DNA of 21,917 nucleotides from positions 1-21,917 of the IMG/VR virus record IMGVR_UViG_3300027580_000031. One strand, written 5' to 3'. The notes under the pieces were generated by a model that was not told the origin of the DNA, made no database searches, and worked only from the letters and a program-made list of their open reading frames with translations. The position numbers and the translations under genes were made by a program. This DNA comes from a virus. Below, piece by piece: positions 4,529 through 21,917 of this stretch (position 1 is its first letter; every line of letters starts with the position of its first letter).

Positions 4529-4936
4529 TTGCCTTGTTGAGTCCCCGGTTGAAGAGGATTTTCCCGACAAGGCAAGTCCAGAATAGGATATCCCGGCGCT
4601 GAGGTCAATGGGTTCAATGAATTGGTTGGGTCTGTCAAAGTCCCCATCATACGGGAATTGAGAGCTAGGTGTATAAATTTTATACAGAAGTTTGGTGAGC
4701 CTAACTTTGCTGAGTTCCCATCAGCCGGGGATTTCAGGGGATAGGCCATGCAATTCAGGAGTGATGGGGATCGAGTGTAGGTGACTGGAATGACTGGAGA
4801 TATGGATTCAATTAATGTTTTGCTTAAATGGATGGGTTGCAGTAGGGTTGCAATGTTGCGACACTCCACTTTCACCTACCGACCGTTAATTGAGGCAGGA
4901 GTAGTAATCATTATCACCACGCAAAGATCATGCCAA

Positions 4937-4953
4937 CCTACCGCACGGTAAGC
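4937..4953 (+). promoter_or_regulatory. Operator-like palindrome (identical to 1948-1964)
   Basis: CCTACCGCACGGTAAGC, containing TACCGCACGGTA with dyad symmetry. It sits between a half-copy (4921-4935) and the first full copy of the 33-bp palindrome, so the two repeat types are interleaved. Confidence 0.5.
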
Positions 4954-4955
4954 AG

Positions 4956-5070
4956 TGGCACGCCTTTTGCCTAGCAAGAATCGTGCCACTTTAATATGGC
5001 ACACCTTTTGCCCTGCAAATATCATGCCAACCTACCATGGCATACTTTTTGCCCAGCAAAAATCGTGCCA
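4956..5070. repeat. Three tandem 33-bp imperfect palindromes at a 41-bp period
   Basis: Copies at 4956-4988, 4997-5029 and 5038-5070 share the pattern TGGCAYRC-YTTTTGC-CYW-GCAARWAT-CRTGCCA. Each is a near-palindrome: the TGGCA/TGCCA ends and the TTTTGC/GCAA inner parts pair around a 3-nt centre. Starts are spaced exactly 41 bp, close to four helical turns, so bound proteins would lie on one face. A right half-copy is at 4921-4935. Iterons for an origin-binding protein or a set of operators are the likeliest uses. Confidence 0.7.
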
Positions 5071-5090
5071 TCAATGTTCCCTGATATTCT

Positions 5091-5155
5091 GACCGACCGT
5101 CCGGTAAGGAGGAGCGACCGACCGTCCGGTAAGCGCTGACTGACCGTTCGGTAAG
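5091..5155 (+). repeat. Three 18-bp direct repeats with operator-like core
   Basis: GACCGACCGTCCGGTAAG occurs identically at 5091-5108 and 5116-5133; a two-mismatch copy, GACTGACCGTTCGGTAAG, is at 5138-5155. The core ACCGNNCGGTAAG is shared with the 17-bp palindromes at 4937 and 1948. Offsets of 25 and 22 bp suggest cooperative binding by one regulator. A C7/G7 hairpin follows immediately. Confidence 0.65.
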
Positions 5156-5377
5156 GACCCCCCTTTGGGGGGGTTCGGGGGGGTGTGTATATCTTATATC
5201 CGACCCAATCGGTGCGCACCCAATTCCCACTGGAGGTAGGACTTCTCTCTGTGCGCCGCCGCCACCCGGGAATTTGAGGCAGCACCATGCCAAAAAATTG
5301 ACACCCCCAGGAGCACTATGCACCCAGGGGCGTTTCCATTTTGAAGATTGAAATTTTGGACTTCAATCTGCAAAATA

Positions 5378-11963: not shown

Positions 11964-13904
11964 ATGGCTGATACAGCTCGAGACAGCCAGCTGTTCTCGG
12001 AATACAAAGAGGCCCATGACATCGCCACCCGGCAGATGGACCGCTTTTACCACGAGGCGCAGACGGATCTGGAGTTCTATTTGAACAACCAGATTCCTAC
12101 GGACGAGTATAACTACTTGTCCAGACAGCGTCGTAACGCCCTGGTCTTCAACAAGATCAAGAAGATCAGCAACCTGATAAGCGGCTATCAGCGGAATCAC
12201 CGCAAAGCATTCCGGGTGGCCTCCCGTCATGGCGGAGGCGCCGGGACAGCCGAACAGCTTGGCAAGGTGCTCCATCAGGTGATGCTGGACCAGGGTGGCT
12301 TTGAGCAGCTTTCCAAGGTTTTCGAACAGGGGCCTGTGAAAACCGGGTTCGGCCTGGTCAACATCTACAATGATTTTTCAGCCGACCCTATTTGCGGGGA
12401 CCCACGGATTTCCTACGTCCCCTGGAACCACTTCTTCATAGATCCCCATTTCACCAGGATCGACCTTCAAGACTGCGCCTTCATGGGCCGCCGCGCCCTG
12501 TTGAGCCGGGAGGAAGCTAAGGCCATTGCTCCCTGGGCTCGGAAACAGATCGAGGACATGCCCAAGAAGTCCTACCAGGATTCCATGTTCCGCTTTCTGG
12601 CCAAATCCTGGGACGTGCTCCAGCAGGATCTCCATGCCCTTGATGAATACTGGAAGCTGGACCACAAAGAGGTCACAATCATCGTGGACACGTCCTCAGG
12701 CAAGTGGCAGGAATGGCCGGATGGTGCCGGAGAGGAGCGTCTCCAGCTTCTGCTCCAGAATAATCCCAATCTTCGGACCAAAAAGCACGTCAAGCGTAGC
12801 GTGAAGTTTATCCAGTTCCTGGACGGTCACAAGCTCTACGAGGGCCTGGATCCCTTGGGTATCGACGACTACAACTTCGTTCCCTTCCTGGGCTTCTTCG
12901 ACTACGAATACCACGACTGGCAGTATAAGCTCCAGGGCGTTATTCGCCCACTCCGGGACCCCCAGCGGGAGACAAATCGCCGGCGATCCAAGATGGTCGA
13001 CATCCTGGACAGCCAGATCCACTCTGGGTGGGCTGCCGAGGAAGGCTCGGTAGTTGATCCCAGCGCTCTCTACCAGACTGGCCAGGGCAAGGTTGTCTGG
13101 ACTGAGCAGAACAAGCTGGATCGCGTCAAGCAACTCCAGGGCGGGGACATTCCCCAGGGACTGTTCCACCTGGCTCAACAGATGGACAATGACATCATGG
13201 AAATCGGAGGGATCAACTCCGACATGCTGGGCGAGAGTCCCACAGGCGAAGAGCGCAATAGCTCCACTTTGTCGGCGCACCGTCGACAACAGGGAATGAC
13301 TACCCTCCAGGAGCTTTTCGATAACTACTACGAGGCCAAGGGAGAAGTGGGCCGCAAGCTCCTACGAGGTATCCAGGAAAACTGGACCGGGTTCAAGGTT
13401 CGGAACTACCTGGGTGAGAAGCCCGAGTCCGCTTTCTTCGCCCCCAGGCTAGTGGAGAACACCATTACCCTGGAGGATGCTCCCTTGACCACGACCCAGC
13501 GGCAGCTGGAATACATGCAAAAGATAGAGCTGAAAGCACAGGGTGCTCCCATCGGCTGGTCTGAGGTTCTCAAGAATGCTCCCCTGGAAGGCAAGGACGA
13601 TCTCCTTAAGAGCGTCCAGCAGGCTGAGCAGAAGCAGGCCGAGGCTGCAGAGTTTCAGCAGCAGCTTGAACAGGCCAAGCTCAAGGAGGATATTGCCAAC
13701 ACTGCGGAGACCCGCTCTGAGACAGCCCTCAATAAGGCCAAGACAGTCAGCGAGATCCATAAGACCCAAGCCGACGTGGCTCAGACAGAGCACAACATCC
13801 AGTCTGCTGAAAAGGACCGCATGCTCCGACTCCTTGAGATCGCCACCCAGACTGACCAGGCGGAACGGGAGATGGCTTCCAAATCCGATTCAGGAAGGCA
13901 ATAG
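11964..13904 (+). CDS. Portal protein, P22-like (646 aa)
   Basis: The portal is the dodecameric ring at one capsid vertex through which DNA enters and leaves. The ATG at 11964 follows AAGGAG by six bases. The N-terminal region with FYLNNQIPTDEYNYLSRQRRNALVFNKIKKISNLISGYQ followed by a polar stretch matches P22-type portals (the 'L..Q.R..L..N.I...i....G...q.r' pattern). Residues near 135-165 (YVPWNHFFIDPHF) fit the family's 'wd...v..Dp' strand. The C-terminal 130 residues are a long Gln/Glu/Ala-rich coiled coil, as in extended portal barrels. Position after terminase and size support the call. Confidence 0.9.
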   Translation: MADTARDSQLFSEYKEAHDIATRQMDRFYHEAQTDLEFYLNNQIPTDEYNYLSRQRRNALVFNKIKKISNLISGYQRNHRKAFRVASRHGGGAGTAEQLGKVLHQVMLDQGGFEQLSKVFEQGPVKTGFGLVNIYNDFSADPICGDPRISYVPWNHFFIDPHFTRIDLQDCAFMGRRALLSREEAKAIAPWARKQIEDMPKKSYQDSMFRFLAKSWDVLQQDLHALDEYWKLDHKEVTIIVDTSSGKWQEWPDGAGEERLQLLLQNNPNLRTKKHVKRSVKFIQFLDGHKLYEGLDPLGIDDYNFVPFLGFFDYEYHDWQYKLQGVIRPLRDPQRETNRRRSKMVDILDSQIHSGWAAEEGSVVDPSALYQTGQGKVVWTEQNKLDRVKQLQGGDIPQGLFHLAQQMDNDIMEIGGINSDMLGESPTGEERNSSTLSAHRRQQGMTTLQELFDNYYEAKGEVGRKLLRGIQENWTGFKVRNYLGEKPESAFFAPRLVENTITLEDAPLTTTQRQLEYMQKIELKAQGAPIGWSEVLKNAPLEGKDDLLKSVQQAEQKQAEAAEFQQQLEQAKLKEDIANTAETRSETALNKAKTVSEIHKTQADVAQTEHNIQSAEKDRMLRLLEIATQTDQAEREMASKSDSGRQ

Positions 13905-15857: not shown

Positions 15858-15877
15858 ACCCTACAAGGAGATAAGTT

Positions 15878-15934
15878 ATGGCTGATACGCTTACAGTCCG
15901 CTCGGACATTCAGCACCAAGACATCCAGACCTTT
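15878..15934 (+). CDS. Major capsid protein, exon 1 (19 codons)
   Basis: The ATG at 15878 follows AAGGAG with a seven-base spacing, 20 bases after the scaffold stop. The frame reads MADTLTVRSDIQHQDIQTF and then meets an in-frame AGA TAG at 15935-15940. The last codons GACC-TTT (15928-15934) pair with GGAGGTC (15950-15956), the expected P1 helix of a group I intron with a U-G pair at the splice site. Splicing to 16622 continues the frame as VHGNFGQSRPMPQNAGDK. Confidence 0.85.
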
Positions 15935-15948
15935 AGATAGTGCATCGT

Positions 15949-15956
15949 AGGAGGTC
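15949..15956 (+). promoter_or_regulatory. Endonuclease ribosome binding site overlapping the intron guide sequence
   Basis: AGGAGG (15949-15954) is the Shine-Dalgarno sequence of the GTG start at 15960. Five of its six bases are part of the internal guide GGAGGTC that pairs with exon 1. Folding of the unspliced intron would hide it, limiting translation of the endonuclease, as known for some phage T4 introns. Confidence 0.6.
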
Positions 15957-15959
15957 TTT

Positions 15960-16520
15960 GTGGGAAAGGCTAACCACATGGCAAAATTCCACCTGAACAA
16001 CGGGAACCCTAAGTGCCCAAAGGCATATGGCAACCCGACCGAAGGTGCGGCTACTAGGCTTGCATACATCGCCGGTTTTTTTGACGGCGAGGGAACCATC
16101 ACCATTGCACGTAACGCACGTGGCAATAAGCCCTACTACCATAGGATCAGCGTTGCGATTACTTCGACCGATCTGGAAGTGCTCCAGCTGATACAAAAAT
16201 GGTTCCCAGAAGGCAAGATTATTGAGGCTCACGACAAACGGGCCAAAAGCCATTATAGGGACGCTTACCGTTACCAGATAACAGGACCTAGAGCATACAG
16301 AATGCTCGTGTCGCTCCAACCTTATCTGGTGCTCAAACGGAGACAAGCAGCCCTGGCGATTGGATTTTATTGGCTCTTCTTCAAGAAGAAGCCAATCACG
16401 GCCCCGACAAATGGTGTGCCTCAAAGAATTGTGGACCAGCGCAACAAATTCTACTGGAAAATGCGTGAGCTGAATCGGTCCATAGGCCTAGGAAGACCCC
16501 GCATCACGGGCAGAGACTGA
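15960..16520 (+). CDS. LAGLIDADG homing endonuclease in the capsid intron (186 aa)
   Basis: The GTG at 15960 follows AGGAGG with a five-base spacing; an ATG at 15978 is a weaker alternative. Residues 34-47 (LAYIAGFFDGEGTI) are one LAGLIDADG motif with acidic Asp42/Glu44; only one motif is seen, so the enzyme should act as a dimer. Strand-rich DNA-contact regions follow (HRISVAITSTDLEVLQLIQKWF, YRYQITGPRAYRMLVSLQPYL). The enzyme would cut intron-less capsid alleles and spread the intron. Its TGA lies inside the intron's P7 element, so the coding region overlaps the ribozyme core. Base composition is more AT-rich than the capsid exons, a sign of separate origin. Confidence 0.9.
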   Translation: MGKANHMAKFHLNNGNPKCPKAYGNPTEGAATRLAYIAGFFDGEGTITIARNARGNKPYYHRISVAITSTDLEVLQLIQKWFPEGKIIEAHDKRAKSHYRDAYRYQITGPRAYRMLVSLQPYLVLKRRQAALAIGFYWLFFKKKPITAPTNGVPQRIVDQRNKFYWKMRELNRSIGLGRPRITGRD

Positions 16521-16621
16521 GCGGTGGAACCCCTTCTGGGGATGCGACAGTCCGGTCCCTGGGGAAACTCAGGAGTCGACGCTACGACGAAACCCTGCTT
16601 CGCAGGGCTCATCCGTATGAG

Positions 16622-17518
16622 GTTCACGGGAACTTCGGCCAGTCCCGTCCCATGCCCCAGAACGCCGGGGATAAGATCCATTTCCGGCGCTATGAGAGCC
16701 TGGGCCTGGCCACCACGCCCTTGAATGAGGGCACCAACCCCGATGGAAGGAACCTGAGTGTCACCGACATCCAGGCCAGCCTGCAACAGTATGGTGACTA
16801 CGTTCACATCACTGACCAGGTCGACCTGATGGCTCGGGACCCGGTTCTTACCGAGACCGCCGAGTTGCTCGGCGAGCAGATGGGCAAGACCCGTGACGTT
16901 CTCGTCCGGGACGCCATCCTGCGCGACTACGTTGAGCGCATCCAGAATGACGGCGAGAGCAAGGTGGACGTCAGTGGATCCATCTCCGACGCGGAGCTGG
17001 AGACCGCAGTCGACGATCTGCTCACTGCCGATGCTCGGTTTATCACCGGCGCGATCCGACCGAGCACTGGTTACAACACCGTGCCTATTCGCCCGGCTTA
17101 CGTGGCCATCTTCAACCCGAACCAGCGAAAAGCTGTTGAGGCCTTCTCGGATTTCGTGCCCGTTTCCGAGTATCCCAGCAATGAGAACGTCCTCGATGGT
17201 GAGTGGGGCGCCGTGAAGAACGTGCGCTTCGTGATGTCCACCCAGGCCGACAATGGCGAGCTGGACACCTGGCTGAATAACCATTCCAGCCTGTCCAGCT
17301 ATACCAACGGCAAGGTGCTCCCGATCTTCGCGGCTGACGCCTACGGCGTGACCGAGCTGACCGGCGGGGCTGCTGCCAATATCGTGAAGGTTCAGGGCGG
17401 AACGTCCGATCCTCTCGAGCTGCGGCGCACTTCCGGCTGGAAGATGCTTATGACCGCCATGGTCCTGAACCCCAAGTTTATGACCATGATCGTGAACTGG
17501 AATGGCGACCACGCCTAG
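16622..17518 (+). CDS. Major capsid protein, exon 2 (N4-gp56-like; 298 aa)
   Basis: The spliced protein is 317 residues. VHGNFGQSRPMPQNAGDKI and HFRRYESLGLATTPLNEG, then DIQASLQQYGDYVHITDQVD and LTETAELLGEQMGKTRDVLVRDA, follow the pattern of N4-gp56-family HK97-fold capsid proteins. The middle (AVEAFSDFVPVSEYP) and the end (WKMLMTAMVLNPKFMTMIVNW) are also family-like. An internal ATG at 16652 gives a frame without a ribosome binding site and lacking the conserved FGQ segment, so it is not the start. A strong stem-loop (17536-17557) follows the stop. With scaffold upstream and neck genes downstream, the call is firm. Confidence 0.9.
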   Translation, partial: VHGNFGQSRPMPQNAGDKIHFRRYESLGLATTPLNEGTNPDGRNLSVTDIQASLQQYGDYVHITDQVDLMARDPVLTETAELLGEQMGKTRDVLVRDAILRDYVERIQNDGESKVDVSGSISDAELETAVDDLLTADARFITGAIRPSTGYNTVPIRPAYVAIFNPNQRKAVEAFSDFVPVSEYPSNENVLDGEWGAVKNVRFVMSTQADNGELDTWLNNHSSLSSYTNGKVLPIFAADAYGVTELTGGAAANIVKVQGGTSDPLELRRTSGWKMLMTAMVLNPKFMTMIVNWNGDHA

Positions 17519-19667: not shown

Positions 19668-19820
19668 ATGAACTGGGTTAAAAAGAGCATTTCTTCAAGT
19701 AGTTGGCACCCGGTGGACGTTATACCGTATATTGGGTGGTTCGCATCTTGGTTTATGAACGGCTGGCTTATGGGGTGGACCACACAGGTCCAGCCTAATA
19801 ATACGTGGAGTAAAAAGTAA
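19668..19820 (+). CDS. Predicted 50-residue Trp-rich membrane peptide
   Basis: The frame from ATG 19668 to TAA 19818-19820 encodes a short polar N-terminus (MNWVKKSISSSSWH), a hydrophobic Trp-rich stretch (VIPYIGWFASWFMNGWLMGW, about residues 18-37) and a polar tail ending in KK. The stop overlaps the ATG of the fibre gene (TAATG). The ribosome binding site is weak (GGGTGATTGT). A membrane-active lysis or virion peptide is possible; unproven. Confidence 0.5.
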   Translation: MNWVKKSISSSSWHPVDVIPYIGWFASWFMNGWLMGWTTQVQPNNTWSKK

Positions 19821-21358
19821 TGGGCGTTTACACAAACAACAACCGGTTTTACAAACCCGCTCTCGGGGCTTCTGGCCAGGAAGAAAAAGACAAGTTCGAT
19901 GAAGCTCTAGACGGGACTGACCAGGAAGTTACTGATCAGCGGAGTCGCCTGGACGACCATTCAAGCAGGCACGAATCCGGCGGTGCTGATGAGATAACCC
20001 ATAATAGCTTAGATATAGCAGAAGACGATCATCACACCCGCTACACCGACAGTGAGGCGGTGAGTGCTGTCAATGCCGAATCCGAGCTTACTGTAAACAT
20101 CACCGGCGATGCGGACACGGTTGACGGCTATCAAACCGAAACACAACCCGGACAAGGGGCGCAAGCTGTCCCGGTAGCTAATAGCGAGGGTTATATCGAC
20201 CAGGGATGGATTTTTCCTGTCTATGGTGTGCGCTGGGATTCGGTCAACGACGTGATGCAGCCGGGCCTTTTGCAGGGAGACACCTTCATAGCCTATGACT
20301 ATCAATCCTTCCCCATCCAGGAAAAAATGGGACGGGGGTTGCTGACTAACGAAGGGGCATGGACCAAGCTCGACCCCAATGACAGTTCTCTCAAGCGTGA
20401 CGGATCTGCTGCCACTCTGGACGGTACCGAGGGCCAGACTCATGTTTACATTCCTCGGTTCCATGCCGCAGTTTTCCGCGAGGGGGATTACATTTTTACC
20501 TTCAACAGCGAGCAGCCGTTCACCTACAAGGGCGTGATTACATCTTGGGTCCCGCGTGGGTTTCGAGACTTACAGCAGCGCTACTGCGGGGCGTTTGAAG
20601 CGGTCGCCGCGAGCGACGCGACCGATGCTTTGGCTAAGTCCATTGTCAAAGACACATCAGGATATGCCATGAGCAATCCTAACCCATTCACCAATCGCAC
20701 TCGTGGAGAATTTCGATCCCAGTGCGACGATGGAATATTCCATCAGTTCGATTATGGATTGTGGGAGATAATTGTAATTCTGTTCCTCACCGAATATAAG
20801 ACGTGGAACTCTCAGGACGTGCTTCCCGGATACACCTGGTCGTCCTGGGATTACTCGAACACATACCAGGTGGGGCAAACCGTTTCTCTTGGGGATAAGT
20901 CCGGCACGGTTACGGACGGCTCGGACAACGTGATCGCCAACAGCTACCGAGGTATCGAAAATATATTCGGGCACGTCTGGAAGTGGATCGACGGGATCAA
21001 CATCGACAACCGGGACGGAGACGTCCACGTCTATGTCTGCTTTGATCCCGCCAACTTTGCGGACGACACAACGTCTGGATATATTGACACCGGTCACGCT
21101 CCAGGCTTCGGGGATAGCGACGACTACATCAAGGATATTCTAGGCCAGGGCGAGCTGTGCCCATTCTATCCCAGCGAGCTGGGGGGAGACTCATCCAGCT
21201 ACATCACAGACTACAACTGGAACAATTCCGGGGCTTGGCGGGTGTTGCTGGTCGGCGGGCGTCTCTCGCATGGCGCTCGGGCGGGTCTCGCGGTTCTGAC
21301 TGCGGCTTACGCCTCGTCGAGTTCGCATTCGCGTATCGGGGCGCGGAGCGCGGCCTAA
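19820..21358 (+). CDS. Tail fibre / receptor-binding protein with variable C-type-lectin-like domain (512 aa)
   Basis: The ATG at 19820 overlaps the previous stop; GTGGAG precedes it. The N-terminal 130 residues carry fibre-like motifs (HESGGADEITHNSLDIAEDDHHTRYTD). The C-terminal part has NSYRGIENIFGHVWKWIDGINI, the signature of FGE-sulfatase-type C-type lectin folds ('SYRG.E..wGNVWEWvDG'). The last 40 residues, WRVLLVGG then RLSHGARAG and finally SRIGARSAA, match the variable region of diversity-generating retroelement targets. The protein would form the host-binding tip, with the variable residues on the binding face. Confidence 0.85.
   Translation: MGVYTNNNRFYKPALGASGQEEKDKFDEALDGTDQEVTDQRSRLDDHSSRHESGGADEITHNSLDIAEDDHHTRYTDSEAVSAVNAESELTVNITGDADTVDGYQTETQPGQGAQAVPVANSEGYIDQGWIFPVYGVRWDSVNDVMQPGLLQGDTFIAYDYQSFPIQEKMGRGLLTNEGAWTKLDPNDSSLKRDGSAATLDGTEGQTHVYIPRFHAAVFREGDYIFTFNSEQPFTYKGVITSWVPRGFRDLQQRYCGAFEAVAASDATDALAKSIVKDTSGYAMSNPNPFTNRTRGEFRSQCDDGIFHQFDYGLWEIIVILFLTEYKTWNSQDVLPGYTWSSWDYSNTYQVGQTVSLGDKSGTVTDGSDNVIANSYRGIENIFGHVWKWIDGINIDNRDGDVHVYVCFDPANFADDTTSGYIDTGHAPGFGDSDDYIKDILGQGELCPFYPSELGGDSSSYITDYNWNNSGAWRVLLVGGRLSHGARAGLAVLTAAYASSSSHSRIGARSAA
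21233..21357 (+). other. Adenine-poor variable region (probable DGR target)
   Basis: The last about 122 bases of the fibre gene hold only seven adenines, against an A-rich stretch (AACTGGAACAATTCC) just upstream. Many codons fit a change from AAC/AAT in a template (CGT, CAT, TAC, AGT, ACT, GCT). This is what adenine-specific mutagenic retrohoming leaves in a variable repeat. The template repeat and reverse transcriptase were not found in the window. Confidence 0.65.
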
Positions 21359-21371
21359 GAACAACGACAGG

Positions 21372-21400
21372 TTGACGCTTGCTTTCTCACATGTTACTGT
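21372..21400 (+). promoter_or_regulatory. Promoter of the HNH endonuclease gene
   Basis: TTGACG (21372-21377), 17 bp, TACTGT (21395-21400). It lies 14 bases after the fibre stop and 28 bases before the HNH start, so this endonuclease gene can be expressed alone. Confidence 0.5.
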
Positions 21401-21427
21401 ATCTCAAAAGTAAATCGAGGATGTAAC

Positions 21428-21917
21428 ATGCGAGACATTCCAGGCTATGAAGGGAAATACGCTGTCACAGAAGATGGTGAGATTTGGAGTTACCCCAACT
21501 GTCAAACAAAATGGCGGTGGCACAAGAAATACACCTTTGTAGGAAACAGAGGATATGAGTGCGCTACATTATATTACGGAAAGAAATCGTGCAGCTATCC
21601 TGTGCATGTGCTTGTAGCGAAGGCCTTCATCCCTAACCCTGAAGGCAAAAAGCACGTAAACCATCTTGACGGGAACAAGCTGTATAACCACAAAAACAAC
21701 TTGGAGTGGGCGACGGCGCAAGAGAACGATCAACATGCACAAAAGCTAGGGCTTAGACCTCAATATACTGAGAGGCAGATCCAGGCGAGGAGAGAGACCG
21801 GGAAGATGACCTGTCACAAAAATGCAAAGAGTAACCGTAGGCTATCTTTTGAAGAGGCTGAATGTATAAGGAAGGTAGTTAGAATTTGCAAGGTCTCTTA
21901 TAGGAAGATGGGCAAGC
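21428..21917 (+). CDS. HNH homing endonuclease with NUMOD4 domain (partial, at least 163 aa)
   Basis: The ATG at 21428 follows GAGG. Residues 3-20 (DIPGYEGKYAVTEDGEIW) are a NUMOD4 module. Residues 59-66 (VHVLVAKAF) and 76-94 (HVNHLDGNKLYNHKNNLEW) are the HNH motif of the HNH_3 type, with His, Asn and second His/Asn residues in place. The end (RLSFEEAECIRKVV...VSYRKMGK) looks like the start of a helix-turn-helix used for target recognition; it is cut by the window edge. These genes are free-standing mobile elements in phages. Composition is more AT-rich than the fibre gene, consistent with transfer. Confidence 0.9.
   Translation, partial: MRDIPGYEGKYAVTEDGEIWSYPNCQTKWRWHKKYTFVGNRGYECATLYYGKKSCSYPVHVLVAKAFIPNPEGKKHVNHLDGNKLYNHKNNLEWATAQENDQHAQKLGLRPQYTERQIQARRETGKMTCHKNAKSNRRLSFEEAECIRKVVRICKVSYRKMGK

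What the first reader, a model, noticed from the sequence alone, without database searches (positions are those of the whole stretch)
21233..21357. DGR-type variable region in the fibre tip with no retroelement in view
The fibre ends in an FGE/C-type-lectin fold with an adenine-depleted tail and codons that look like mutated AAY. If a template repeat and reverse transcriptase lie downstream, the HNH gene has inserted next to the cassette. If none exists in the genome, this would be a fossil or a trans-acting DGR target.
Basis: partly seen in the sequence, partly recalled or inferred. Interest (0 to 1): 0.7.

Follow-up and report, generated by a model that had tools for sequence, protein, structure and literature searches.

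The report
Hypervariable phage fibre tip, retroelement missing
The tail fibre of this phage ends in a stretch built to be rewritten by a diversity-generating retroelement, a known way for phages to change what they bind; the contig stops 559 bases later, inside another gene, so whether the rewriting machinery is nearby, elsewhere or lost cannot be settled here.

Summary
Bases 21233-21357 hold 8 A in 125, at the contig's minimum of A content, and encode the C-terminal end of a tail fibre (phrog_5302) with a C-type-lectin/FGE fold whose best structural matches are solved DGR target proteins. In relatives, 60 VR/TR pairs differ at 1301 template adenines against 60 other positions. The template of relative L123 explains this VR codon by codon: 24/30 template A changed versus 24/99 other bases (p = 6e-8). 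It is therefore a genuine DGR variable region, with no sign of long decay. 'No retroelement in view' is true but weak evidence of absence, because the 21,917-base contig ends 559 bp after the fibre, inside an HNH gene. Still, all 60 relatives with a local template have it starting within 549 bp of the stop; here there is none. About 12 relatives share this no-local-template state, and one (L027) is a clean cassette deletion. The cassette is thus displaced past the HNH gene, elsewhere in the genome, or lost; I cannot decide among these. Known kind; modest interest.

The parts
19820..21358 (+). tail-fibre (receptor-binding type) gene, 512 aa; residues about 133-512 are the FGE/C-type-lectin domain
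   Evidence: phrog_5302 tail protein E 1.7e-67; AlphaFold2 model and Foldseek to TaqVP/Mtd/FGE; profile match to 5vf4; no Pfam family
21236..21355 (+). DGR variable region (VR), hypervariable core about 21239-21346
   Evidence: lowest A content of the contig; codon-by-codon match to the template of L123, p = 5.6e-8; columns mutable in 53 relatives are non-Asn here
21359..21427 (.). intergenic gap where relatives carry (or begin) the template repeat; none here; contains part of inverted repeat CATGTTAC/GTAACATG (21390-21397, 21423-21430)
   Evidence: TR starts 22-549 bp after the stop in 60/60 relatives; none here; fold
21428..21917 (+). HNH_3 endonuclease gene with NUMOD4 motif, cut by the contig end; occupies the usual place of template and reverse transcriptase
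   Evidence: Pfam HNH_3 E 2.2e-7 and NUMOD4 just below its cut-off; phrog_59 E 5.8e-37

Best explanation
The end of the fibre gene is a genuine DGR variable region. Mechanism (established for other DGRs, inferred here): a template repeat is transcribed, a DGR reverse transcriptase copies it with errors at template adenines, and the cDNA replaces the VR, so about ten surface residues of a C-type-lectin binding tip change while the scaffold codons stay. Shown: the VR signature, the fold, and the fit to a template of the L123 kind. Not shown: the phage's own template and reverse transcriptase. They are not in the 559 bp where relatives with a local template have it, because an HNH endonuclease gene sits there and the contig ends in it. 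My split over their location, given a real VR: just beyond the HNH gene, displaced by its insertion, about 35%; elsewhere in the same genome or in trans, about 30%; recently lost, about 30%; other 5%.
For: A-minimum of the contig and no A-ending codon. 24/30 template A but 24/99 other bases of L123's TR differ from this VR, 16 of the 24 non-A differences at third positions. 60 VR/TR pairs with 1301 A versus 60 non-A differences in relatives. RTs in 6/8, 50/80 and 23/25 related records, 263-964 bp downstream of the fibre in 51 of 53 placed. Two sister contigs, L027 and L030, are otherwise identical over 11 kb and differ at 16 sites, all in the VR, 14 at template A: the family is diversified in nature. 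Fold.
Against: No TR or RT of this phage was seen. No second copy of this phage was found, so no population diversity was measured. No initiation-of-mutagenic-homing element was identified.
Confidence: 0.9

Rival explanations
1. Fossil: the cassette was deleted from this lineage and the VR is frozen, drifting as an ordinary gene end.
For: Relatives show the process: L027 has lost TR and RT relative to L030 (1109 bp between 7-bp repeats TGGGCAG); S-EIVl keeps VR and TR but only about the first 27 aa of the RT; L126 has the neighbour gene directly after the fibre where L123 has the cassette.
Against: Zero A-ending codons and the contig's minimum of A argue against long drift; a recent loss is not excluded.
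Confidence: 0.3
2. Remote or trans target: template and RT lie elsewhere in the phage genome, or in a prophage or host.
For: About 12 related loci with at least 559 bp downstream have no local TR; a starred clade (L044, L056, L033, L076) shares that state; close relatives L024 and L126 lack it over 4.9 and 2.8 kb; remote targets are known (PMC8144416).
Against: For L040, L044, L047 and L056 no convincing TR was found anywhere in the 23-69 kb records; L123 and L122/L127, also close, have the RT in the same record. No TR for L035 was found although its record has a distant RT.
Confidence: 0.3
3. HNH homing endonuclease inserted between VR and TR of an otherwise ordinary cassette that continues beyond the contig end.
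For: HNH starts 70 bp after the fibre stop, where TRs usually are; the contig carries a second homing-type gene, LAGLIDADG, near the capsid gene; an HNH of the same type abuts a DGR-like RT in L112.
Against: No HNH_3 gene between VR and RT in 98 related records; no trace of a split TR in the 559 bp.
Confidence: 0.35
4. No DGR at all: a G+C-rich lectin tail shaped by ordinary selection.
For: No TR or RT in the record.
Against: Template-A-specific difference from L123's TR, contig-wide A minimum, family of DGR targets.
Confidence: 0.04

Closest known systems
L123 (IMG/VR 3300027580_000051), phage fibre with complete local DGR: VR, TR at +87, RT of 338 aa
   Same: 46% identical fibre, same 42-codon VR layout; its TR fits this VR at template adenines
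   Different: Has TR and RT directly downstream; no HNH between; other genes of its contig not alike
Bordetella phage BPP-1 major tropism determinant (Mtd) DGR
   Same: C-type-lectin fold with a C-terminal VR; Mtd variants among the best structural hits
   Different: Mtd has adjacent Avd, TR and RT (established knowledge); none seen here
Thermus aquaticus DGR variable protein TaqVP (PDB 5vf4)
   Same: Best sequence-profile and structural match, including the C-terminal VR
   Different: 14% identity; not a member of this phage fibre family by sequence
phrog_5302 tail proteins (crAss-like and other gut phages)
   Same: E 1.7e-67 over residues 133-510; crAss-like cr50_1 carries an RT beside its homologue
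   Different: Distant (about 25-30% identity); gene order differs

Membership tests
Diversity-generating retroelement (DGR), variable region | VR near the 3' end of a target gene, depleted of A with constant scaffold codons | tested here: met
Diversity-generating retroelement (DGR) | Own template repeat differing from the VR only at template adenines | tested here: inconclusive
   Not in the contig and not in the searched collections, but the contig ends 559 bp downstream; met by proxy with L123's TR
Diversity-generating retroelement (DGR) | DGR reverse transcriptase in the same genome | tested here: inconclusive
   No RVT_1 in the record; the record is a fragment
Diversity-generating retroelement (DGR) | Target protein with C-type-lectin (or Ig-like) fold | tested here: met
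Diversity-generating retroelement (DGR) | Population diversity confined to VR adenine-derived sites | not testable with these tools
   No reads or sister copy of this phage; shown in relatives L027/L030
Diversity-generating retroelement (DGR) | Initiation-of-mutagenic-homing site at the VR 3' end | tested here: inconclusive
   G+C-rich VR end and an inverted repeat downstream, but no IMH/IMH* comparison is possible without the TR
HNH_3 / NUMOD4 endonuclease | HNH_3 domain over the curated cut-off | tested here: met
   30.8 bits against 24.8; NUMOD4 21.9 against 23.4, just below

The most novel reading that the evidence does not exclude
The phage has no reverse transcriptase of its own and its fibre VR is rewritten in trans by a cassette in another replicon (host, prophage or co-infecting phage), with the HNH gene having taken the cassette's place.
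Probability: 0.08. Interest if true: 0.7.

Novelty: new member of a known kind. Interest (0 to 1): 0.33.

Why it matters
DGR-diversified receptor-binding tips are a known phage strategy. This case adds a diverged fibre on an otherwise novel contig, and points to a less documented question: how often VRs outlive or are separated from their cassettes. About one in six related loci with enough downstream sequence has no local template, and one pair of sister contigs shows the cassette cut out cleanly.

Tried and rejected
Searched for a template within the window with A-tolerant scans of both strands: none. Sought kin of the phage through portal and terminase: none in viral contigs; through the right end of the contig: none. 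HNH relatives (21 loci) lie beside neither this fibre family nor the RT set used. The codon third-base test alone was only suggestive (p = 0.06) and was superseded by the comparison with L123's TR. Rfam found no intron or other RNA in the window.

Full report
What is there. The window is the whole of a linear 21,917-base virus record. From left to right it carries primase, terminase, portal, capsid, adaptor and fibre genes. The fibre gene 19820-21358 belongs to phrog_5302, a tail protein family. An HNH_3 gene starts 70 bases after its stop codon and is cut by the contig end.

The observation. In 21233-21357 there are 8 A in 125 bases, against 25% in the body of the gene. This is where the contig's A content per 125 bases reaches its minimum. 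No codon of the stretch ends in A, against 14.7% in the body of the gene. An AlphaFold2 model of residues 133-512 from 42 aligned sequences (pLDDT 88, pTM 0.90) has as its best structural matches the DGR variable protein TaqVP (E 5e-9), then variants of the Bordetella phage determinant Mtd, formylglycine-generating enzymes and the Treponema variable protein. The sequence profile also finds TaqVP. Pfam alone gives no hit.

Relatives. The first search gave 8 related loci, a second 80, and a third, aimed at the nearest clade, 42 loci, some seen before. RTs were found in 6/8, 50/80 and 23/25 of the records tested. In 51 of the 53 records placed, the RT match begins 263-964 bp downstream of the fibre stop on the same strand. 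In 60 loci I aligned VR and TR. They differ at 1301 template adenines and 60 other positions; the TR starts 22-549 bp after the stop in all 60.

Test on this VR. The closest relative with a whole cassette in view is L123 (46% identical; TR at +87; RT of 338 aa, RVT_1 E 3.8e-17). Its TR aligns without gaps to this VR. Of 30 template A, 24 differ; of 99 other bases, 24 differ, 16 of those at third codon positions (Fisher p = 5.6e-8). Template codons AAT stand opposite CAT, ACT, GCT, AGT and CGT; ACG opposite TCG; CAA opposite CGG. Over 53 relatives, the 10 columns that are Asn in most templates are all non-Asn here. I conclude that this is a DGR variable region, and not an old relic, since adenines have not returned at silent positions.

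Where is the cassette? The contig ends 559 bp after the stop, so absence of an RT says little. Absence of a TR says more, since every relative with a local TR shows its start within that distance. About 12 relatives with at least 559 bp downstream have no local TR: L024, L026, L033, L035, L040, L044, L047, L056, L062, L076, L099 and L126. Among the nearest kin, L123 has TR and RT locally and the recoded L122/L127 have an RT; L024 and L126 have none in 4.9 and 2.8 kb. L021, L022 and L121 are contigs that break at the VR, as hypervariable repeats are reported to do (PMC8008677). In the tree the states are mixed and no-local loci occur in several places.

Precedents for the possible states. Loss: L027 and L030 are identical over 11 kb save 16 differences, all in the VR and 14 at template adenines, and L027 lacks 1109 bp holding most of the TR and the RT, with a 7-base repeat at the junction. 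A 7-base repeat is too short to explain a misassembly, and the flank beyond is only 88% identical, so I take the deletion as real (inference). S-EIVl, a cultured cyanophage, keeps VR and TR but only about the first 27 aa of the RT. Remote: L035's record has its RT 17 kb away, and L053's lies 19 kb upstream; remote targets are known (PMC8144416). HNH beside DGR: in L112 (the record of L035) an HNH gene of the same type abuts an RT that sits with an Avd-like gene and two FGE-like targets (the Avd and target calls are by eye). L076 has a NUMOD4 remnant just after the VR. But no HNH_3 gene lies between VR and RT in 98 related records, so an HNH insertion here would be unusual.

Verdict. Observation confirmed; interpretation partly supported. 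The stretch is a member of a known kind (DGR target in a phage fibre), with an unresolved and probably non-canonical cassette location. The steps of mutagenic retrohoming are inferred from established work on other DGRs; nothing here shows activity in this phage.

Noticed in passing
L027 and L030 (1-11249; L030 11250-12358): Two virus contigs identical over 11 kb differ at 16 sites, all in the fibre VR and 14 at template adenines; L027 has lost the rest of the TR and the whole RT between 7-bp repeats TGGGCAG. A natural orphan VR.
   Followed up: yes
L019 (Synechococcus phage S-EIVl), 5640-6019: Cultured cyanophage keeps VR and TR after its fibre gene, but its RT is reduced to about the first 27 residues (annotated as 90-bp AHV82156.1): apparently a dead DGR.
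   Followed up: partly
window 15860-16660: A LAGLIDADG ORF (15960-16520) lies in the 5' part of the capsid gene: a short capsid-like start (MADTLTVRSDIQHQDIQTFR, about 15878-15937) precedes it and the capsid frame resumes after it. Possible intron; Rfam finds no group I match.
   Followed up: partly
L112 12405-17299 (record G023): DGR-like RT (432 aa) with an Avd-like gene, two FGE-like targets and an HNH/NUMOD-type gene overlapping the RT stop; a VR-bearing fibre of the window's family lies 17 kb away with no template found.
   Followed up: partly
L123 about 12548-12841, L030 after the RT, L148 after the VR: A conserved gene of about 97 aa (KFSDFA...LDG...GKxLTLQ...IFTGSDVL) recurs beside these cassettes; no Pfam family.
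   Followed up: partly
L122, L127: RTs of these relatives contain in-frame TGA, suggesting a recoded TGA in these phages.
   Followed up: no
L021, L022, L121, L061, L066, L074, L079, L098: Contigs of related phages end at or inside the VR, consistent with assembly breaking at hypervariable repeats.
   Followed up: no
window 4956-5078 and 5089-5157: Three tandem copies of a 41-nt repeat, then three copies of a 22-nt repeat; an inverted copy of a flanking 23-mer lies at 1945-1967 (partner 4934-4956).
   Followed up: no
L076 7911-8156: An 82-aa ORF with a NUMOD4 motif starts about 12 bp after a fibre VR that has no RT in its 14-kb record.
   Followed up: partly
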